Shown piece after piece: positions 45,200 through 53,152 of a stretch of 64,000 nucleotides of DNA. The notes beneath the pieces are model-generated. The model saw only the letters and a program-made list of their open reading frames with translations, was not told the DNA's origin and ran no database searches. The position numbers were made by a program, and so were the translations under genes. Every line of letters begins with the position of its first letter. Within the stretch, counting starts at the first letter, position 1. The stretch is from Lentzea tibetensis (GTDB lineage Bacteria; Actinomycetota; Actinomycetes; Mycobacteriales; Pseudonocardiaceae): assembly GCF_007845675.1 (NCBI RefSeq), contig NZ_VOBR01000005.1, forward strand, positions 296,439-360,438, written 5' to 3'.

Positions 45200-46489
45200 A
45201 TGACCTCCACGGCGTTGCTCACCGACCACTACGAGCTGACCATGCTGGCCGCCGCGCTCAGGGATGGCACCGGCGATCGTCCCTGCGTGTTCGAGGTGTT
45301 CGCCCGGCGACTTCCGGATGGACGACGATACGGCGTGGTCGCCGGTGTGAACAGGTTGCTGGCCGCCATTCGAGACTTCACGTTCGGCGAAGCCGAGATC
45401 ACCCAGCTCCGCGACCACGCCGTTGTGGATGACGCAACGCTCGAGTGGCTCGCGAACTACCGGTTCACCGGACAGATCGACGGCTACCCCGAGGGCGAGC
45501 TGTACTTCCCCGGCTCGCCGATCCTCACGGTGCGCGCGTCGTTCGCCGAGGGCGTGGTGCTGGAGACGCTCGCGCTGTCGATCCTCAACCACGACAGCGC
45601 GATCGCGTCCGCCGCCGCACGCATGGTCAGCGCCGCCAACGGCCGCCGCATGATCGAGATGGGCTCGCGCCGCACGCACGAGGAAGCCGCCGTGGCATGC
45701 GCCCGCGCGGCGTACCTCGCCGGGTTCACCGCAACGTCGAACCTCGAAGCGGGGCGCAGGCACGGGATCCCGACCGCGGGCACCTGCGCGCACGCCTTCA
45801 CGCTGCTGCACGACAGCGAGGAGGCCGCGTTCCGCAGCCAGGTGGAGTCGCTCGGTGCGGACACCACGCTCCTCGTCGACACCTACGACATCACCGAGGG
45901 CATCAACAAAGCCGTCGCCATCGCGGGCGCCGAACTGGGTGCCGTGCGCATCGACTCCGGCGACCTCGGCGTCATGGCCAGGCAGGCCCGCGAGCAGCTC
46001 GACGCGCTGGGCGCCAAGAACACCCGCATCGTCGTGTCCGGCGACCTCGACGAGTACTCGATCGCCGCGCTGCGCGCCGAGCCGGTCGACGCGTACGGCG
46101 TCGGCACGTCGGTCGTCACCGGTTCCGGCGCCCCGACCGCGGGCATGGTCTACAAGCTGGTCGAAGTGGACGGTCGCCCGGTCGAGAAGCGCAGCTCCCA
46201 CAAGGAGTCCCGCGGTGGCTGGAAGGGCGCGGTGCGCAGGCACAAGGACACCGGCACCGCGCTGGAGGAGGTCGTCTTCCAGGCCGCCGACCAGCCCGAG
46301 GTCGGCCCGCACGACCGGCTGCTGCAGATCCCCCTGGTGCGCGATGGACAGCAGACCGACCAGGTGCCCACCCTGGAGCAGAGCCGCGAACGCCTGCGCG
46401 CCGCGCTCGTGAGCGTGCCGTGGGAAGGCCTCAAGCTGTCCCGCGGCGAGCCCGCGATCCCGACGGTCCACCTGAAGAAGGAGTCCTGA
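45200..46489 (+). CDS. pncB: Nicotinate phosphoribosyltransferase
   Basis: Converts nicotinate and PRPP to nicotinate mononucleotide in the NAD salvage pathway. The 429-residue protein has the family pattern: [41 protein letters not shown]-type start, [20 protein letters not shown] and [20 protein letters not shown], then [20 protein letters not shown]. It is one base before pncA and divergent from clpS, matching mycobacterial pncB1/clpS order. Confidence 0.95.
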
Positions 46490-46490
46490 C

Positions 46491-47048
46491 GTGAGCAAGG
46501 CGCTGATCGTCGTCGACGTGCAGAACGACTTCTGCGAGGGCGGCTCGCTCCCGGTCGCGGGTGGCGCGGCCGTCGCGGCGGCCATCTCGCGGCACATCGC
46601 GGAGAACGACTACGACCACGTGGTCGCGACCCGCGACTACCACGTCGATCCGGGTGCGCACTTCAGCGAGACGCCGGACTACGTCGACACGTGGCCGGTG
46701 CACTGCGTCGTCGGCACGCCGGGTGCGTCGTTCCACTCGGAGCTGGACGTCGCCCGGATCGAGGCCGTGTTCTCGAAGGGCAGGCACGCGGCCGCCTACT
46801 CGGGTTTCGAGGCGGAGAACGACCTGGCCGGTTGGCTGCGCGCGCACGAAGTGGACACCGTCGACGTCGTGGGGATCGCGACGGACCACTGCGTGCGCGC
46901 GACGGCGTTGGACGCCCAGCGCGAGGGCTTCCGCACCACGGTGCTCGTCGGGCTCACCGCGGGGGTGGCTCCGGCGACCGTGGAGACCGCACTGACCCAG
47001 CTGCGCGAGGCCGGTGTGGCCGTGAGTGGCCAGCGCGGTGGCCACTAA
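46491..47048 (+). CDS. pncA: Nicotinamidase
   Basis: Hydrolyses nicotinamide to nicotinate, feeding PncB next to it. The 185-residue isochorismatase-fold enzyme has the catalytic triad Asp9 (LIVVDVQNDF), Lys96 (VFSKGRHAAAYSGFE) and Cys134 (GIATDHCVRATALDA); metal ligands Asp49, His51 and His57 lie in ATRDYHVDPGAHF. GTG start one base after the pncB stop. Confidence 0.93.
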   Translation: MSKALIVVDVQNDFCEGGSLPVAGGAAVAAAISRHIAENDYDHVVATRDYHVDPGAHFSETPDYVDTWPVHCVVGTPGASFHSELDVARIEAVFSKGRHAAAYSGFEAENDLAGWLRAHEVDTVDVVGIATDHCVRATALDAQREGFRTTVLVGLTAGVAPATVETALTQLREAGVAVSGQRGGH

Positions 47049-47240: not shown

Positions 47241-47897
47241 TCATGGCGTCGGCGAGCAGGCCGCGGAACCGATGCTGACGGTTCCGCTGTACCCGGACGC
47301 GGGTTCGAACGTGATCCTGATCAGGTTCATCGTGATGCTGCCGTCGTTCGGCTCGGGCAGGATCACCTCGGCGAACTTGGCCTTGGCGAGCACCGTGCCG
47401 CCCTTCTTGATCTCGTGCACGTAGTTGGCCGGGATCTGCTGGGGCAGGCCGGTCCAGCCGCTCATGCCGCCGAGCGCCCATCCGGCGTTCGTGCCGTTCT
47501 GGGTCGCGTCGCAGGTGAGCCGCCACGAGCCGATCTTGAGACGCGGGCCGCCCTGCGCGACCAGCGCGGACAGCTCGAAGCCGGTGCCCTTCGCCTCGGA
47601 CTTGGTCGTGGTGACCCACTCCTCCTCGTTGACCACCGTGGTGGTGCACGTCGAGGTGGTCGCGCCGAACTTGACGCCCGTCTTCGTGACGGCGGGCGAG
47701 CCGCCGTTGACGGTGCCTGCCGCGTCCGGGTTGATAGCGCAGGGCGCGAGCGTGCCGATCACGACGGGGGCGCTGTTGCCCCTGGCGAAGTTGGCCGCGC
47801 CCGCCGATGCCTCACCTGCCGGAGTGGCCAGCGCGGGTACCGCGGTGACCAGCATGCCCGCGACTACTGCCGCCGACAGCAAACCGATCCGCTTCAT
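47241..47897 (-). CDS. Secreted choice-of-anchor P-like protein without anchor
   Basis: A 218-residue exported protein with a signal peptide at about residues 1-25 (MKRIGLLSAAVVAGML...ALATP). Its C-terminal region, GGTVLAKAKFAEVILPEPND then SITMNLIRITF, parallels the choice-of-anchor P protein at 49462-50235 (AIAEVIFNEQIKNKDGSLTV). It ends VSIGSAACSPTP, just where that protein goes on to its sorting tail, so it would be released or held by others. Four Cys may form disulfides. A shared 10-mer lies upstream of both genes. Confidence 0.75.
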   Translation of the reverse strand: MKRIGLLSAAVVAGMLVTAVPALATPAGEASAGAANFARGNSAPVVIGTLAPCAINPDAAGTVNGGSPAVTKTGVKFGATTSTCTTTVVNEEEWVTTTKSEAKGTGFELSALVAQGGPRLKIGSWRLTCDATQNGTNAGWALGGMSGWTGLPQQIPANYVHEIKKGGTVLAKAKFAEVILPEPNDGSITMNLIRITFEPASGYSGTVSIGSAACSPTP

Positions 47898-47975
47898 TGA
47901 TTGTCCCCTTCCAGAATCCCTCCGCTCGATCTTTGCGCTCAATGAGCCAGTCAGTAACAGCTCGGCACCCCATGT

Positions 47976-48011
47976 CACTCGGTCGTGCAATCGCAATTAC
48001 CCGACCGAGTG
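47976..48011 (-). terminator. Long-loop inverted repeat after wecB
   Basis: CACTCGGTCG (47976-47985) and CGACCGAGTG (48002-48011) are perfectly complementary with a 16-nt loop. It lies 30 bp beyond the wecB stop and 79 bp before the start of the next minus-strand gene, so it could be a terminator or an operator. Confidence 0.45.
47993..48002 (-). promoter_or_regulatory. Shared 10-mer GGGTAATTGC, copy upstream of the anchorless protein
   Basis: GCAATTACCC on the plus strand, GGGTAATTGC on the coding strand, lies about 96 bp before ATG 47897 and inside the loop region of the 47976-48011 repeat. The same ten bases recur at 50307-50316 upstream of the second choice-of-anchor P gene. A common activator or sigma-factor element is possible. 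Confidence 0.35.
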
Positions 48012-48040
48012 CACAGCGGGCTGTTAGTCACTGGATGAAT

Positions 48041-49213
48041 TCAACGAACGCCCGCGAGTGACTTGTGGGGATCGCGGCGCGGCAACGCGGTGGGCAGTCC
48101 GGCGAGCCGTTCGAGGGCGGCGCAGACCCGCACGGCGGCACGCCCGTCGCCGAACGGGTTGCGCCCCAGCGGCAGCCGCAGCCGGGAACCGAGCACCCAG
48201 CCGGCCTCCGCGAGGATCCGGGTGGTGTCCGTGCCGACGAGCCAGGCGCACCCGGCGTCGACGGCGAGCATGCGTTCGGTGGTCTCGCGCAGCACCAGCA
48301 CCGGGACGCCGAACGTCGGCGCCTCCTCCTGGATGCCACCGGAGTCGGTGAGCACGAGCGCCGCGCGGCGCAGCACGCGCACGAGGTCGGAGTAGTCGAG
48401 CGGTTCGGTGACGACGATGCGCTCGTGGCCGCCGAGCTCGGTGCGGACCTGGTCGCGCACCTCGGGGTTCGGGTGCGCGGGCACCAGCACGTGCACGTCG
48501 GGGTGGCGGTCCGCGATCGAGCGGACGGCGTGCAGCACGCGGGCGAGCGGACGTCCCCACGACTCACGGCGGTGCACGGTGAGCAGGACCAGGCGGTCGC
48601 CGCGCGCGTCGAGGCGGCGTTCCAGCGCGGCGAGCTCGGGGTCGTGCGCGGGCGGGTTGGCCAGCGCGACGCGCTGCACGGCGTCGACGACGGTGTTGCC
48701 GGTGACCACGATGTCGCTGTCCGGCAGGGACTCCCGCTCCAGCGCGTTGGCCGCGTCGTCGGTCGGGGCGAGGTGCAGCGAGGTGATGCGCGAGATCATC
48801 TGCCGGTTGCCCTCCTCGGGGAAGGGGCCGTACAGGTCGCCGGTGCGCAGGCCGGCTTCGAGGTGCGCGACGGGGATGCCGCGCCAGAACGCGGCGAGCG
48901 CGCCCGCCAGCGTGGTGGTCGTGTCGCCCTGCACCAGGACGACGGCCGGGTCGCGGTCGGTGAGCAGGCGGTCGAACTCGGGTAACAGGTTCGCGACCAG
49001 CTCGGCCTGGGTGCCGGTCTGCCTCGGCACGTCCAGCCGGACGTCGGGGACGAGGTCGAACGCGTCGAGCGCCTGCTCGACCATGCCCGCGTGCTGTCCG
49101 CTGTGGACGATCGTGGGGCGCAGCGACGGGTGCCCCCTGAGTGCGATCGCCACCGGGGCGATCTTGACGGCTTCCGGTCTGGTTCCTGCTACTAGAAGTA
49201 CTTCCTTGCTCAT
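48041..49213 (-). CDS. wecB: UDP-N-acetylglucosamine 2-epimerase (non-hydrolysing)
   Basis: Interconverts UDP-GlcNAc and UDP-ManNAc for surface glycans. The 390-residue GT-B-fold protein has VAGTRPEAVKIAPVAIAL, IVHSGQHAGMVEQ, VLVQGDTTTTLAGALAAFW and LTDSGGIQEEAPTFGVPVLV, as in WecB/MnaA. It lies between the two choice-of-anchor P type genes and near a glycosyltransferase, suggesting it supplies a sugar for a polymer or glycan linked to that system. GGAAGGAAG precedes the ATG. Confidence 0.93.
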   Translation of the reverse strand: MSKEVLLVAGTRPEAVKIAPVAIALRGHPSLRPTIVHSGQHAGMVEQALDAFDLVPDVRLDVPRQTGTQAELVANLLPEFDRLLTDRDPAVVLVQGDTTTTLAGALAAFWRGIPVAHLEAGLRTGDLYGPFPEEGNRQMISRITSLHLAPTDDAANALERESLPDSDIVVTGNTVVDAVQRVALANPPAHDPELAALERRLDARGDRLVLLTVHRRESWGRPLARVLHAVRSIADRHPDVHVLVPAHPNPEVRDQVRTELGGHERIVVTEPLDYSDLVRVLRRAALVLTDSGGIQEEAPTFGVPVLVLRETTERMLAVDAGCAWLVGTDTTRILAEAGWVLGSRLRLPLGRNPFGDGRAAVRVCAALERLAGLPTALPRRDPHKSLAGVR

Positions 49214-49231
49214 GTCTTCCTTCCGTGGGAA

Positions 49232-49270
49232 GGGGATCCGGCGGGGTTGGGGGCGACCCCGCCGGACCCC
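49232..49270 (-). terminator. Hairpin terminator between LAXTG gene and wecB
   Basis: CCGGCGGGGT (49238-49247) pairs with ACCCCGCCGG (49256-49265), extended by GGGG/CCCC with a bulge. It lies 5 bp after the LAXTG gene stop and just before the wecB Shine-Dalgarno. It may end or attenuate the anchor-P/LAXTG transcript. Confidence 0.6.
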
Positions 49271-49274
49271 CTCT

Positions 49275-49451
49275 TCACTCGGCCTTCACCGAGACGGCGC
49301 GACGGCGCTTGCGCGTCGCGTGCAGGAGCAGCGCTCCGGCCACGAGCAGCACGACGCCGGCGGTGATCCACCACGTCACGTCCGCTCCGGTGACCGCGAG
49401 CGAGCCGACGCCCGTGCCTACGGCCACCCCGCTACCGGGGACCTTGTACAT
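49275..49451 (-). CDS. 58-residue peptide with LAVTG sorting signal
   Basis: A tiny protein made up almost only of a cell-wall sorting signal: LAVTG (18-22), a TM helix (about 25-44, WWITAGVVLLVAGALLL) and a basic tail RKRRR (47-51). LAXTG is the target of class E sortases in actinobacteria. No N-terminal signal peptide is seen, which is odd for a sortase substrate. A Shine-Dalgarno (TAGGAG) overlaps the stop of the choice-of-anchor P gene just upstream, so its translation is coupled to that gene. No sortase gene is in the window. Confidence 0.65.
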   Translation of the reverse strand: MYKVPGSGVAVGTGVGSLAVTGADVTWWITAGVVLLVAGALLLHATRKRRRAVSVKAE

Positions 49452-49461
49452 GCGCTGGCTC

Positions 49462-50235
49462 CTAGGCGGCGTTGAGCGCGTTGCGCCTGCGGATCGCGGT
49501 GAACCCGACGGGCACCGCGACGAGACCCAGCAGGCCGAGTCCGATCCACAGGCCGGCACCGGACGCCATCGGGATGGGCAGGCCGGCCGGGCCGCACGTG
49601 GCCGATGACAGGATCAGGTCGCCGGTCCCGATGGAACCGAGCTTGCCCTGCAACAACTTCACGTGGATCGCGTTGACGGTGAGGCTGCCGTCCTTGTTCT
49701 TGATCTGCTCGTTGAAGATCACCTCGGCGATCGCGATGTCGAGCAGCTGCACGTCCAGCTTCGTGTTCGGCGCCGGATCGGCGTTGACCTGGCCCAGCTT
49801 GCCGAGGTTCACCCCGGCCAGCTTCGACTTGCCGGTGACACCCTTCTGGGTGGCCTCGCACTCCGCCTCGACCAGCTCCGCGGTGATCTTGCCGGTCACC
49901 TTGCTCAGCAGGTCCAGCCGGACGTCCGCGGTGCTCGCCCGCGAGTACACCCCGCCGGTCTTCTCGTCCCGCGACGCCGACGTGTTGATCACGCCGGTCT
50001 TCAGGACGCCGGTGAGGTCCACGCCCACGAACGTGTTCTTCGTGGGACCGTTCGCATCGGCTGCGGCGAACGGGCCGGCAGACACCGCCGGGCTGTTCAG
50101 CAGCGTCAGGTTGAGCTTCGCGCCGTAGGCCGAGGCGTCCCCCGGTGCAGCTGAGGCCGGTGCGGCACCGACCAGCAGCGCCGCGATGGCGACCACACCG
50201 GCCAGGCCACCGCGACGCGTCATTCGCACACGCAT
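49462..50235 (-). CDS. Choice-of-anchor P family surface protein with exosortase-type tail
   Basis: A 257-residue exported protein. Signal peptide 1-29 (LAGVVAIAALLVGAAPASA). The body (ASAYGAKLNLTLLNSPAV, then AIAEVIFNEQIKNKDGSLTV) matches, by pattern, the choice-of-anchor P family. It ends with a short motif LPIP-MASG (219-226), a TM helix (227-248) and RRR (249-251), the tripartite plan of exosortase targets. A divergent exosortase-like gene is 295 bp away, so it is the likely substrate. ATG 50235 is chosen for the AAAGGA upstream; ATG 50223 is possible. Confidence 0.82.
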   Translation of the reverse strand: MRVRMTRRGGLAGVVAIAALLVGAAPASAAPGDASAYGAKLNLTLLNSPAVSAGPFAAADANGPTKNTFVGVDLTGVLKTGVINTSASRDEKTGGVYSRASTADVRLDLLSKVTGKITAELVEAECEATQKGVTGKSKLAGVNLGKLGQVNADPAPNTKLDVQLLDIAIAEVIFNEQIKNKDGSLTVNAIHVKLLQGKLGSIGTGDLILSSATCGPAGLPIPMASGAGLWIGLGLLGLVAVPVGFTAIRRRNALNAA

Positions 50236-50278
50236 GTAGCTCTTTTTCCTTTCCTCCGGGGCCTTCCAGAGCGCGGTC

Positions 50279-50293
50279 GAACCAATCTGGTTC
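50279..50293. promoter_or_regulatory. 15-bp palindrome upstream of the anchor-P gene
   Basis: GAACCA-ATC-TGGTTC is a perfect inverted repeat 44 bp before ATG 50235, in the divergent region shared with the exosortase-like gene. Operator function is inferred. Confidence 0.45.
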
Positions 50294-50306
50294 ACGCATC
50301 TGGGGG

Positions 50307-50316
50307 GCAATTACCC
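50307..50316 (-). promoter_or_regulatory. Shared 10-mer GGGTAATTGC, copy upstream of the anchor-P gene
   Basis: The same ten bases as at 47993-48002, 72 bp before ATG 50235 and in the same orientation relative to the gene. See that entry for the comparison. Confidence 0.35.
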
Positions 50317-50530
50317 AGATCGGCTTTCCAACGGGGGAATTGAGGGTTACTCCCCGTATCTAGTGACGCGACCACCCAGAACGCCCAATCGAGACCACTC
50401 ATCGTGCGTTTCTGTGGCGAAAACGGGTGAAGGCGTCACCCGATCCGGGGGTGAGGGCTGACGTTGTGTGGACCGATGGCCTTGGGTGTAGCCCGTCTGG
50501 GCGCTCTCCATCGGTGGAAAGGATCCTGGG

Positions 50531-51049
50531 GTGACGCTTGCCGTCCGCCGCACCGCCTTCCCGAGCCGGGTGACGGTCGTCGTCCTGCTCGCCGCAGCCG
50601 CCGGTCTGGTGCTCGCGCACCGCCTGTACCGGACTGCTGAGATCTCGCTGTCCGGCGCGGTGCTCGCACTGCTCAGCTCGGACGGCGTGCACGTGGCCGC
50701 TGAACGGCAGACCGTCTACTTCGGACTCGGCTCGGACACGCCGCTCGGGCTGCGCATGACGCCCGAGTGCACGTCCGCGTTCCTGGTGCTGCCGCTGCTC
50801 GTGGTCGGTGCTGTGATGATCGCGCTGCGGCCGCGCATCCAGCAGCGCGTCCTGGTCGCACTGGGGGTCGCCGCGCTGGCGGTGGTGATCGTCAACCAGT
50901 TCCGCGTGCTCACGCTCGTCGGGCTGGTGAAGTGGCTGGGCGTCGACACCGGGTACTACTGGGGCCACACGCTGCTGGGTTCCATGGTCAGCGTGTTCGG
51001 CGGCGCGGCCGCGCTCGTCGCTTTCGTCTGGCTGGCCACGCGGAAGTGA
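50531..51049 (+). CDS. Exosortase-like membrane transpeptidase (XrtP-like)
   Basis: A 172-residue protein with about five TM helices and the exosortase/archaeosortase catalytic residues: Cys80 in MTPECTSAFLVLPLL, Arg125 in VNQFRVLTLVG and His146 in YYWGHTLLGSMVSVFGG. The family removes the C-terminal motif-TM-Arg tail of target proteins and links them to a lipid or glycan. I recall exosortase P being associated with choice-of-anchor P proteins; here the divergent neighbour has just such a tail. GGAAAGG precedes the GTG. It lies 34 bp before the glycosyltransferase gene. Confidence 0.82.
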   Translation: MTLAVRRTAFPSRVTVVVLLAAAAGLVLAHRLYRTAEISLSGAVLALLSSDGVHVAAERQTVYFGLGSDTPLGLRMTPECTSAFLVLPLLVVGAVMIALRPRIQQRVLVALGVAALAVVIVNQFRVLTLVGLVKWLGVDTGYYWGHTLLGSMVSVFGGAAALVAFVWLATRK

Positions 51050-51083
51050 ACCGCGCCGACGTACTTTTCGCAGCGGAGGCGCC

Positions 51084-52457
51084 ATGAACTTGGACCTGGT
51101 TCTCGGGTTCACGCAGGCGCTCGCTCTCACCATGAGCGTGGCCTTCGTGACGTACGTCTTCGTGATCGTGGTGCCGTACCTGAGACGCAAGCCGGCGCCG
51201 CTGGGCGTGCCGAACTCGCTGGAGTGGCACTTCTTCGTGCCCTGCCGCGACGAGGAGGCCGTCATCGGCGACACGATCAGGTACCTGCGCGGGCACTTCC
51301 CCATCGCGCACGTGTGGGTCATCGACGACGACTCCGACGACAAGACCGCCGGTGTCGTGCGGATGCTGCGGCGCAACGGCGGCGAGACCGACAAGCACAT
51401 CCACCTGGTGCAGCGGCACCGCCCGCAGGCGCGCACCGGCAAGGGCGACGCGCTGAACGACGCCTACCGCACGGTCAAGATGTGGATGGGGCGGCACGCG
51501 GACGCCGACCGCGCGATCATCGTGGTGGTGGACGCGGACGGCCGTCCCGGCACCAACTGCCTCGAGGTGTGCGCGGCGGAGCACCTGTTCGGCGACCCGC
51601 GGATCGGTGCCGTGCAGGTGGACGTCCGGATGATCAACAAGGGTGAGCGACAGGTCGGCGTCGCGCGCTGGCGCCGGTTCTTCGGCGCCTCGCTGGTGCG
51701 CATGCAGGACCTGGAGTTCCGCACGGCCATCGCGGCGATCCAGATGTCGCGCGGCGTCAGCGGCACGATCTCCATGGGCGGCAACGGCCAGTTCACCCGA
51801 CTGTCCGCTTTGGACTCGATCGCGGGCCCGACCGGCAGCCCGTGGCGCGGGTCGCTGCTGGAGGACTTCGAGCTCGGCGTGCACCTGCTGACCGCGGGCT
51901 GGCGCACCGGGTTCACCATGGACACGCACGTGAACCAGGAGGGCCTGTACAGCCTGCGGCGGTTCCTCGCGCAACGCACGCGCTGGGGTCAGGGGACGAT
52001 GCAGTGCATGCGGTACCTGCGCCGCATCTGGGACTCCGAGCACCTGTCCACGCTGGGCGCCGCGGAGATGATGTACTACCTCGCCCAGCCGTGGATGCAG
52101 CTGCTCGGCACGCTCATCTACCCGATCCCGATGTTCCTGATGGGGTGGCGGTTCCTGACAGATCCCGGCGAGGTCGCGGCGTGGTTCTTCGACGGTGCCT
52201 GGATTCTGTTCGCGGTCTATGGTGCGTTCGGACTACTGCCGTTCGTCCTCTGGGGACCCGTCTACCGCGCCAGGTGCGAACCGGGTACGTCCGTGTGGCG
52301 GTCCATCGGCTACGGATTCGGCTACGCGCTCTACATCTACACCTTCTACATCACGTCGTGGCGCGCGCTGATTCGCTTGGTGCGCGGGCACAACGGGTGG
52401 ACGAAGACCCGCCGCAACACCGAGCACGTCGCAGGCAAGGTGGCACTGGATCACTGA
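51084..52457 (+). CDS. Glycosyltransferase family 2, processive type membrane enzyme
   Basis: A 457-residue enzyme with an N-terminal TM helix, a GT2 domain (VIDDDSDD at 79-86; VVDADGRPG at 149-157; LEDFELG at 259-265; QRTRW at 297-301) and about four C-terminal TM helices. The D, DxD, ED, QxxRW set is that of cellulose/hyaluronan/poly-GlcNAc synthases. It follows the exosortase-like gene, so it may build the glycan to which sorted proteins are linked. GGAGG before the ATG. Confidence 0.9.
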   Translation: MNLDLVLGFTQALALTMSVAFVTYVFVIVVPYLRRKPAPLGVPNSLEWHFFVPCRDEEAVIGDTIRYLRGHFPIAHVWVIDDDSDDKTAGVVRMLRRNGGETDKHIHLVQRHRPQARTGKGDALNDAYRTVKMWMGRHADADRAIIVVVDADGRPGTNCLEVCAAEHLFGDPRIGAVQVDVRMINKGERQVGVARWRRFFGASLVRMQDLEFRTAIAAIQMSRGVSGTISMGGNGQFTRLSALDSIAGPTGSPWRGSLLEDFELGVHLLTAGWRTGFTMDTHVNQEGLYSLRRFLAQRTRWGQGTMQCMRYLRRIWDSEHLSTLGAAEMMYYLAQPWMQLLGTLIYPIPMFLMGWRFLTDPGEVAAWFFDGAWILFAVYGAFGLLPFVLWGPVYRARCEPGTSVWRSIGYGFGYALYIYTFYITSWRALIRLVRGHNGWTKTRRNTEHVAGKVALDH

Positions 52458-52564: not shown

Positions 52565-53152
52565 GTGGTGTCCGTACTCGCCGTGTCGTCAAGGCGTCGC
52601 GTGGTGCTCGCCGACCTCGTGTCGACCTCTGTCGTGCGCGACCTCGCTCTGGTCGCCACCGGCGCCGTCGTGGTCGGGCTCGCCGCCCAGATCGCCGTGC
52701 CCATCCCGGGATCCCCTGTCCCGCTGACCGGTCAGACGTTCGCCGCGCTGCTCGTCGGCGCGTCGCTCGGCTGGCAGCGCGGTGCCACCTCGATGCTGCT
52801 GTACCTGATCGCGGGTGTGGCCGGTGTGCCGTGGTTCCAGGGCGGCACGTCCGGTGCGCCGGTGTCGCTCGGGTACGTCGTCGGGTTCGTGTTCGCGGGC
52901 GCGCTCGTGGGTGGGCTGGCGTCGCGCGGTGGTGACCGCACGCCGTTGCGGACGGTCGGCACGATGGCGCTCGGCAACCTGGTGATCTACGCGGTCGGTG
53001 TGCCGTGGCTGATGGCCGCCGCGTCGATCGGCTTCTCCCGTGCCGTCGCGGTCGGGGTGCTGCCGTTCCTGCTGGGTGACGCGGTCAAGATCGCGCTGGC
53101 GGCGGGTCTGCTGCCGGGCGCGTGGGCGCTGGTGCACCGCTTCCGCCGGTAG
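52565..53152 (+). CDS. bioY: BioY biotin ECF transporter S component
   Basis: A 195-residue membrane protein that captures biotin for an ECF transporter. It shows the BioY pattern: IAVPIPGSPVPLTGQTFAAL, VGASLGWQRGATSMLLYLIA, GVPWFQGGTSG and LGYVVGFVFAGALVGGLASR. AGGAGG lies just before GTG 52565 (GTG 52568 is equally good). BioM and BioN genes are not adjacent, so a shared ECF module is likely. Confidence 0.92.
   Translation: MVSVLAVSSRRRVVLADLVSTSVVRDLALVATGAVVVGLAAQIAVPIPGSPVPLTGQTFAALLVGASLGWQRGATSMLLYLIAGVAGVPWFQGGTSGAPVSLGYVVGFVFAGALVGGLASRGGDRTPLRTVGTMALGNLVIYAVGVPWLMAAASIGFSRAVAVGVLPFLLGDAVKIALAAGLLPGAWALVHRFRR

What the first reader, a model, noticed from the sequence alone, without database searches (positions are those of the whole stretch)
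47241..52457. Putative exosortase/anchor-P surface-protein and glycan cluster in an actinobacterium
Six genes fit one pathway: an exosortase-like protease (Cys80, Arg125, His146), a processive GT2, UDP-GlcNAc 2-epimerase, a choice-of-anchor P protein with a motif-TM-RRR tail, an anchorless paralogue, and an LAVTG mini-peptide. The two halves are divergent around a 295-bp promoter region holding a palindrome. A lipid or glycan carrier made by WecB/GT2 might receive the sorted protein. Exosortase systems are best studied in Gram-negative bacteria, so this one is worth testing.
Basis: partly seen in the sequence, partly recalled or inferred. Interest (0 to 1): 0.85.

Follow-up and report, generated by a model that had tools for sequence, protein, structure and literature searches.

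The report
Exosortase-P surface-protein and sugar-polymer locus
A soil-type actinobacterium carries a known kind of protein-sorting enzyme with its one surface-protein client beside a sugar-polymer synthase, and the tiny 58-residue protein encoded with them seems to belong with the sugar-polymer enzyme rather than to be a client of the sorting enzyme.

Summary
In detail: all six genes are at the stated places. NCBIfam places five above curated cut-offs: exosortase XrtP, its client CoaP, the XrtP-associated processive GT2, WecB and a 58-aa "LAXTG small" protein. It is a new member of a catalogued system on which I found no paper, from a Lentzea-like actinobacterium.

New here is how the parts divide. 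In 80 named GT2 loci the mini is present in 80. CoaP is in 74, and all 74 have an exosortase with intact Cys/Arg/His. The six loci without CoaP have no exosortase (3) or one lacking active-site residues (3), yet keep the mini. CoaP is thus the likely client. Class-wide, 12 of 13 stand-alone minis outside the window lie beside a GT2, eight without a nearby exosortase; 0 of 15 similar tails of longer proteins do. The mini lacks a signal peptide by inspection; Tyr follows the start in 104 of 108, Pro-Tyr in 4. Its LAxTG tail suits a class E sortase.

Caveats: these losses are 2-3 events; among closest GT2 relatives class-wide, mini and exosortase co-occur perfectly (9 of 9 against 0 of 6); one mini is fused to an exosortase; nothing was measured.

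The parts
47241..47897 (-). 218-aa secreted anchorless paralogue of CoaP (no C-terminal tail)
   Evidence: No NCBIfam family, no Pfam family above its cut-off; profile-profile match to CoaP, probability 99.5, E 3e-22 over 204 columns; a homologue in 36 of 80 named loci (37 hits, one of them a weak fragment)
48041..49213 (-). WecB, non-hydrolysing UDP-GlcNAc 2-epimerase
   Evidence: TIGR00236, 392 bits, cut-off 210; present in 78 of 80 named loci (table)
49275..49451 (-). 58-aa mini-protein: Met-Tyr, Gly-rich N tail, LAVTG, one TM segment with WW, basic C tail; no signal peptide by inspection
   Evidence: NF058583 LAXTG_small_WW, 97 bits, cut-off 65; 80 of 80 named loci; substitutions between the window and 16 Lentzea-type minis fall 129/73/295 on codon positions 1/2/3, as in a real gene
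49462..50235 (-). CoaP, choice-of-anchor P surface protein
   Evidence: NF040603 98.9 bits, cut-off 27, and NF053845 CoaP_CTERM 67.3 bits, cut-off 35
49477..49581 (-). CoaP C-terminal sorting tail: PIPMASGAGLW, TM segment, RRR
   Evidence: CoaP_CTERM match at residues 219-253; motif PxP[ML]ASGxG[LM][WY] in 73 of 74 CoaP tails, the other one unreadable
50236..50530 (.). 295-bp divergent promoter region with conserved blocks
   Evidence: Aligned with 13 other loci
50436..50454 (.). Imperfect palindrome TCACCC-7 nt-GGGTGA, probable operator
   Evidence: Inverted repeat I9; core almost invariant; function inferred
50531..51049 (+). Exosortase P (XrtP), 172 aa, Cys80/Arg125/His146
   Evidence: NF012139 272 bits, cut-off 200; TIGR04178 33.6 bits, cut-off 23; residues
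51084..52457 (+). XrtP-associated processive family-2 glycosyltransferase, 457 aa
   Evidence: NF053846 726 bits, cut-off 520; D81/D82, D150-A-D152, E260-D261 and Q297-R298-x-R300-W301 invariant in 17 aligned sequences

Best explanation
The locus joins two modules. (1) Sorting module: XrtP cuts the C-terminal PxPMASGAGLW-TM-RRR tail of one client, CoaP, through Cys80 and passes the new C terminus to an unidentified acceptor at the outer face of the membrane. The tailless paralogue is simply secreted. (2) Polymer module: WecB supplies UDP-ManNAc, the processive GT2 builds and extrudes an amino-sugar polymer, and the 58-aa mini-protein, inserted N-out without a signal peptide, is the small membrane partner of the GT2. 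Its LAxTG tail is probably cut by a housekeeping class E sortase, leaving the Tyr-2 peptide on the wall. Shown by comparison: identity of the parts, the CoaP-exosortase pairing, adjacency of minis to GT2s. Inferred: cleavage, acceptor, polymer chemistry, sortase action on the mini and the role of Tyr2.
For: Five of six proteins match NCBIfam models above cut-off. Order sample of 150 genomes: XrtP over cut-off in 10, LAXTG_small in the same 10, CoaP_CTERM in 9 of those plus one other genome, GT2 in those 10 plus 7. Named loci: 74 of 74 with CoaP have intact C/R/H; 6 of 6 without CoaP have no exosortase or one lacking active-site residues; mini in 80 of 80. CoaP tail motif in 73 of 74, the other unreadable. 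The two genomes with only altered XrtP copies keep three other choice-of-anchor P proteins, none with that tail. GT2 adjacency: 12 of 13 stand-alone minis outside the window (8 of the 12 with no exosortase in the fetched stretch) against 0 of 15 long-protein tails. Tyr at position 2 in 104 of 108 minis and Pro-Tyr in 4; Tyr2 in 4 of 505 other genes. C tail more basic than N tail in 103 of 108. Sortases in 24 of 24 genomes tested; in one genus a sortase gene lies about 4 kb from the exosortase. Class E sortases use LAXTG (PMC5148588, abstract and passages).
Against: Of the 16 strongest GT2 matches in the class sample (398 bits or more) I looked at 15: nine have an exosortase and all nine a mini; six (L053, L057, L179-L182) have neither. 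In the order sample three more exosortase-less GT2 loci (L051, L055, L056) have no mini, against one with a clear mini (L045) and one weak (L052); six exosortase loci (L044, L046-L050) have no mini. So within this GT2 family the mini mostly goes with the exosortase. One metagenome-type locus fuses mini and exosortase (L186). The CoaP/exosortase losses are few lineages: L127 alone, and L098/L099 perhaps sister to L102/L103/L109, so 2-3 events. G125 has a CoaP-tailed protein but no XrtP over cut-off. The mini-like gene on contig 44 of the window's genome has no GT2 neighbour. No activity, topology or structure was measured.
Confidence: 0.55

Rival explanations
1. The mini-peptide is itself an exosortase substrate or partner: XrtP recognises both the CoaP tail and the LAxTG tail, perhaps joining one to a product built on the other.
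For: In all 80 named loci; perfect co-occurrence with XrtP in the order sample; among the strongest class-wide GT2 matches looked at, mini in 9 of 9 with an exosortase and 0 of 6 without; a mini-exosortase fusion in one genome (L186); minis in 8 of 14 fetched loci with other exosortases.
Against: LAxTG minis persist where the exosortase is absent (L102, L103, L109) or lacks active-site residues (L098, L099, L127), in G115 and weakly G035 with no TIGR04178 match, and beside other GT2s without an exosortase in the fetched stretch (L173-L177, L190, L191, L193, L205-L207).
Confidence: 0.26
2. The mini is an unprocessed structural subunit of the GT2, as PgaD is for PgaC; LAxTG is only a membrane-boundary motif.
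For: GT2 adjacency across several GT2 subfamilies; membrane anchor plus conserved N terminus.
Against: The motif is LAxTG in 103 of 108 minis, LPxTG in 4 and VATTG in 1, which fits the class E sortase signal; several GT2s of the family lack a mini.
Confidence: 0.3
3. XrtP does not transfer CoaP to an acceptor but only clips and releases it, so that CoaP becomes a matrix protein of the polymer like its tailless paralogue.
For: A secreted tailless paralogue sits beside it in many relatives; no acceptor-making gene could be identified apart from the GT2 and WecB.
Against: A simple secreted version would need no exosortase; archaeosortase A gives lipid-anchored products (PMC7157517, passages).
Confidence: 0.25
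4. Altered or absent exosortase loci are in decay, and the retained mini and GT2 are passengers.
For: The GT2 branches to L098/L099 (0.26) and to L102/L103/L109 (0.28) are longer than most in the tree, and L053, which lost mini, CoaP and exosortase, has 0.67.
Against: In L098, L099 and L127 the altered exosortases stay open reading frames over the domain, and in all six loci the mini keeps LAxTG and WW.
Confidence: 0.12

Closest known systems
NCBIfam XrtP / CoaP system (NF012139, NF053845, NF040603, NF053846)
   Same: All four models match above curated cut-offs; gene order conserved in relatives
   Different: Nothing essential; the window is a member. What the mini does is not told by the model names, and no paper was found
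PEP-CTERM/EpsH exosortase of Gram-negative bacteria (PMC1569441, passages read)
   Same: Cys, Asn-x-x-Arg and His-x-x-x-Gly motifs; tripartite tail; link with exopolysaccharide genes
   Different: EpsH model TIGR02602 15.5 bits, cut-off 105.55; 172 aa, whereas EpsH homologues have at least eight helices; one client instead of a median of eight; monoderm host. That paper found no PEP-CTERM in actinomycetes
Class E sortase LAXTG substrates (PMC5148588, abstract and passages read)
   Same: LAxTG, TM segment, basic tail; sortases in the host genome
   Different: The mini is 58 aa without a signal peptide or ectodomain; processing not shown
Processive GT2 polysaccharide synthases (PgaC/IcaA, cellulose synthase)
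   Same: D, DxD, ED and QxxRW motifs; profile matches cellulose and chondroitin synthase chains
   Different: PgaC model 45 bits, cut-off 422; no PgaD recognised among the six proteins; neighbour is the LAxTG mini
Archaeosortase A (PMC7157517, passages read)
   Same: Membrane Cys enzyme acting on C-terminal tails, with a gene needed for the lipid modification nearby in Methanosarcina
   Different: There the modification depends on lipid-synthesis genes; here the neighbour is a sugar polymer synthase

Membership tests
Exosortase P (XrtP) | Score over the curated NF012139 cut-off | tested here: met
   272 bits, cut-off 200
Exosortase P (XrtP) | Conserved Cys, Arg and His | tested here: met
   C80, R125, H146; kept in 98, 100 and 99 of 101
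Exosortase P (XrtP) | Adjacent client with the CoaP tail | tested here: met
   CoaP_CTERM 67.3 bits; the only match listed in this genome
Exosortase P (XrtP) | Cleavage or transpeptidation of the client | not testable with these tools
   Needs an experiment
Exosortase P (XrtP) | Several membrane helices with the active site at the outer face | not tested
PEP-CTERM/EpsH exosortase | Over the TIGR02602 cut-off | tested here: not met
   15.5 bits, cut-off 105.55
Choice-of-anchor P / CoaP | Ectodomain plus CoaP_CTERM tail | tested here: met
   98.9 and 67.3 bits
LAXTG_small_WW (NF058583) | Over the curated cut-off | tested here: met
   97 bits, cut-off 65; nine distant minis from other loci score 17.6-38.8, below it, and the L186 fusion did not match it
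Sortase (LPXTG-type) substrate, considered for the mini | Pentapeptide motif, TM segment, basic tail | tested here: met
   LAVTG; TIGR01167 20.3 bits, cut-off 15.9
Sortase (LPXTG-type) substrate, considered for the mini | N-terminal signal peptide | tested here: not met
   Only 17 residues before LAVTG, by inspection of the translation; so it is not filed as an ordinary sortase substrate
Sortase (LPXTG-type) substrate, considered for the mini | Sortase-dependent wall attachment | not testable with these tools
   Sortase genes exist in 24 of 24 genomes, which is permissive only
Processive GT2 polysaccharide synthase | D, DxD, ED and QxxRW motifs | tested here: met
   Invariant in 17 sequences; motif meaning recalled
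PNAG synthase PgaC/IcaA | Over the TIGR03937 cut-off | tested here: not met
   45.4 bits, cut-off 422.3

The most novel reading that the evidence does not exclude
The Met-Tyr LAxTG mini-proteins are a new class of glycan-anchoring peptides. The GT2 polymer is built on, or joined to, the exposed Tyr-2 of a 50-70-aa membrane peptide, and a sortase (or, in the fused form, an exosortase) then links that peptide to the wall, so that a transpeptidase anchors a polysaccharide instead of a protein. The CoaP/exosortase pair would be a detachable add-on that decorates the same polymer.
Probability: 0.12. Interest if true: 0.88.

Novelty: new member of a known kind. Interest (0 to 1): 0.55.

Why it matters
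Exosortases were linked to exopolysaccharide genes in 2006 without a known reason (PMC1569441, passages), and I know of no identified acceptor for a bacterial one (recalled). This actinobacterial version is compact, appears to have one client per genome in the relatives tested, and occurs in named, mostly cultured strains (Lentzea, Amycolatopsis, Saccharothrix), so the question can be tested directly. Natural loci whose exosortase lost active-site residues suggest which neighbour depends on catalysis (the client) and which does not (the mini). The near-universal start-Tyr on a signal-less LAxTG mini-protein beside glycosyltransferases points to an overlooked small-protein partner of polysaccharide synthesis in actinobacteria.

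Tried and rejected
Mini as exosortase client: weakened by the loci with absent or altered exosortase, but kept as a serious rival because of the L186 fusion and the co-occurrence found on rechecking. PEP-CTERM/EpsH membership: rejected. PNAG synthase PgaC identity: rejected. A link between mini and exosortases across the whole phylum: of the 21 non-window exosortase matches I fetched 20; 15 have a GT2 homologue 49-1207 bp away, one has a mini. Chance origin of the mini ORF: rejected by codon-position bias (129/73/295 at positions 1/2/3) and conservation. Alternative cargo in the six CoaP-less loci: a crude tail scan listed only the two altered exosortases of L098 and L099 themselves and one 532-aa frame in L127 that I did not follow up. 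Solved structures: none for the exosortase profile; nothing useful for CoaP. A treekit tree ran but its display failed on a row-name error, so FastTree was used. A first count of minis excluded frames over 260 aa and missed 8 loci; it was redone without that limit. Of the top 31 matches, 29 were examined (one of them the window itself); the two not fetched were one in G000 contig 55 outside the window and one in G699. Of the 16 GT2 matches of at least 398 bits, one (G849 contig 8) was not fetched.
Full report
What is there. NCBIfam assigns five above curated cut-offs: exosortase P (272 bits, cut-off 200), XrtP-associated glycosyltransferase (726, 520), choice-of-anchor P plus CoaP_CTERM (98.9, 27 and 67.3, 35), WecB (392, 210) and LAXTG_small_WW (97, 65). 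The 218-aa protein has no NCBIfam model and no Pfam match above cut-off but is a full-length paralogue of the CoaP ectodomain (probability 99.5, E 3e-22, 204 columns) and stops where CoaP's tail starts. The window lies in a 9.36-Mb draft genome. Its GT2 is 91% identical to that of Lentzea sp. NBRC 105346.

Regulatory spacer. The two halves diverge from a 295-bp spacer. Aligned with 13 other loci, it shows several nearly invariant blocks, among them CACCCGATCCGG within the palindrome TCACCC-7 nt-GGGTGA. An operator role is inferred.

Co-occurrence. In an order-level sample of 150 genomes, XrtP passes its cut-off in 10, LAXTG_small in exactly those 10, CoaP_CTERM in 10 (9 shared; G125 has it without XrtP over cut-off; one XrtP genome scores below the CoaP cut-off), and the GT2 in 17 (those 10 and 7 more). 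The layout CoaP-mini-WecB divergent from XrtP-GT2 is present in the window and the nine other XrtP genomes. CoaP_CTERM has one listed match per XrtP genome (only part of the first-look candidates was scored), so the exosortase looks dedicated to one client.

Eighty named loci. The mini is in 80 of 80, WecB in 78, CoaP in 74, an exosortase homologue in 77. All 74 CoaP loci have exosortases with Cys, Arg and His. Of the six without CoaP, L102, L103 and L109 have no exosortase; L098 has N/R/A, L099 H/R/A and L127 V/H/H at the three positions. All six keep the mini. CoaP against intact exosortase gives Fisher p = 3e-9, but a GT2 tree reduces the six to two or three independent losses, so the p value overstates the case. 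Genomes G152-G154 (L102, L103, L109) have another XrtP over cut-off elsewhere. G150 (L098 and L127) and G151 (L099) have none over cut-off. The three choice-of-anchor P proteins found there lack the ASGAGLW tail; G150 also holds a third exosortase of another type with its own differently tailed protein. The tail motif PxP[ML]ASGxG[LM][WY] is in 73 of 74 CoaP proteins, the other being unreadable.

What the mini goes with: for the GT2. A profile of 18 minis (A3; M1, Y2, A19, T21, G22 and G39 invariant, starts having been chosen) was run on a class sample of 394 genomes. I examined 29 of the top 31 matches. One is the window. Thirteen others are stand-alone short ORFs; 12 of these lie within about 620 bp of a GT2, and 8 of the 12 have no exosortase in the fetched stretch. 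Fifteen are tails of longer proteins, and none has a GT2 in the fetched stretch (Fisher p = 4e-7; some of those stretches end at a contig end). The exception is a second mini in the window's own genome, beside a short-chain dehydrogenase. The neighbouring GT2s of seven distant minis were confirmed with Pfam. A clear mini also occurs in G115 and a weak one in G035, genomes without a TIGR04178 match.

What the mini goes with: for the exosortase. Among the 16 strongest GT2 matches of the same class sample (398 bits or more) I looked at 15. Nine have an exosortase and all nine have a mini; six (L053, L057, L179-L182) have neither (Fisher p = 2e-4). In the order sample, 8 of 14 fetched loci with exosortases other than XrtP have a mini (not L044, L046-L050), and of seven fetched GT2 loci without an exosortase one has a clear mini (L045), one a weak one (L052) and five none (L051, L053, L055-L057). 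Within this GT2 family the mini therefore mostly travels with the exosortase. It is the named loci that lost the exosortase or its active site but kept the mini, and the minis of other GT2 subfamilies, that point to the GT2 as the common denominator.

Features of the mini. In 108 loci examined with A3 (81 of them the window and the 80 named loci), every mini has a start codon followed by Tyr (104) or Pro-Tyr (4). The start was chosen as the nearest such codon upstream of the motif, which favours this outcome; by comparison 4 of 505 other predicted genes carry Tyr2. L178, L185 and L186 were not in that count. Length is 48-72 aa, median 59. The motif is LAxTG in 103, LPxTG in 4 and VATTG in 1. 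The C tail is more basic than the N tail in 103 of 108, which by the positive-inside rule (recalled) suggests N-out topology. NCBIfam's model covers the XrtP-linked form: nine of ten distant minis tested score 17.6-38.8 bits, under its cut-off of 65, and the tenth, the fusion, did not match it.

A fusion. In genome G655 (68% complete) the mini and an exosortase with Cys, Arg and His at the aligned places form one 233-aa ORF between WecB plus a 189-aa protein without a Pfam match and the GT2 (L186). It is a single case and could reflect an assembly error, but it keeps a mini-exosortase contact possible.

Wider exosortases. TIGR04178 matches 21 of 396 genomes of the phylum sample. Of the 21 non-window matches I fetched 20. 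Fifteen have a GT2 homologue 49-1207 bp from the exosortase, and one of these (L171) also has a CoaP-like protein and a mini. Exosortase with GT2 is thus a broad association; the mini is specific to some GT2 groups. Clients also vary: an Ice-binding-like protein beside the exosortase of L043, and a DUF11-like protein (label recalled) in L038.

Mechanism. The GT2 has the D, DxD, ED and QxxRW residues of processive synthases (meaning recalled) and its profile matches cellulose and chondroitin synthase chains in the PDB. With WecB this suggests a GlcNAc- or ManNAc-containing polymer (inferred). XrtP most likely processes CoaP by sortase-like chemistry, as proposed for EpsH (PMC1569441, passages) and for archaeosortase A (PMC7157517, passages). 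LAXTG is the class E sortase signal in Streptomyces (PMC5148588, abstract and passages), and sortases occur in all 24 genomes tested. In G125 and G138 (one genus) a sortase gene lies about 4 kb from the exosortase. I therefore place the mini with the GT2, processed by sortase, at moderate confidence only.

Novelty. The XrtP/CoaP system is already modelled in NCBIfam, so the finding is a member of a known kind. No paper on it was found (listings and starts of abstracts; the library holds open-licence PMC papers, and the 2012 exosortase/archaeosortase survey was not held). The division into a client-exosortase pair and a mini-GT2 pair, and the start-Tyr feature, did not appear in those listings.

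Noticed in passing
L057 (G000:C33:360000-377000): The same genome has a second GT2-WecB locus with a homologue of a DUF2334 (polysaccharide-deacetylase-like, recalled) protein, without exosortase or mini.
   Followed up: partly
L172:7696-7875 (G000:C44): A second Met-Tyr mini-protein (LANTG motif) in the same genome, with no GT2 neighbour, beside a short-chain dehydrogenase and an unannotated 246-aa protein.
   Followed up: partly
L186:6614-7315: Fusion of a LPYTG mini to the N terminus of an exosortase in one ORF.
   Followed up: partly
L183:8759-11098: Three adjacent predicted proteins with near-identical VGEDCADDIPxVAPAVA tails beside an exosortase-GT2-mini locus: possibly one exosortase with several clients.
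   Followed up: no
L046-L050: These exosortase loci without a mini carry one or two adjacent proteins of one family, GAF-domain by Pfam in L047, suggesting a different regulatory partner.
   Followed up: partly
L045:5623-6999: A GGDEF (diguanylate cyclase) protein is near the mini-GT2-WecB-DUF2334 locus of an exosortase-less genome, hinting at c-di-GMP control.
   Followed up: no
window 45200-47048 and 52601-53152: Flanking genes are ordinary: nicotinate phosphoribosyltransferase, an isochorismatase-family (nicotinamidase-like, recalled) protein and BioY.
   Followed up: yes
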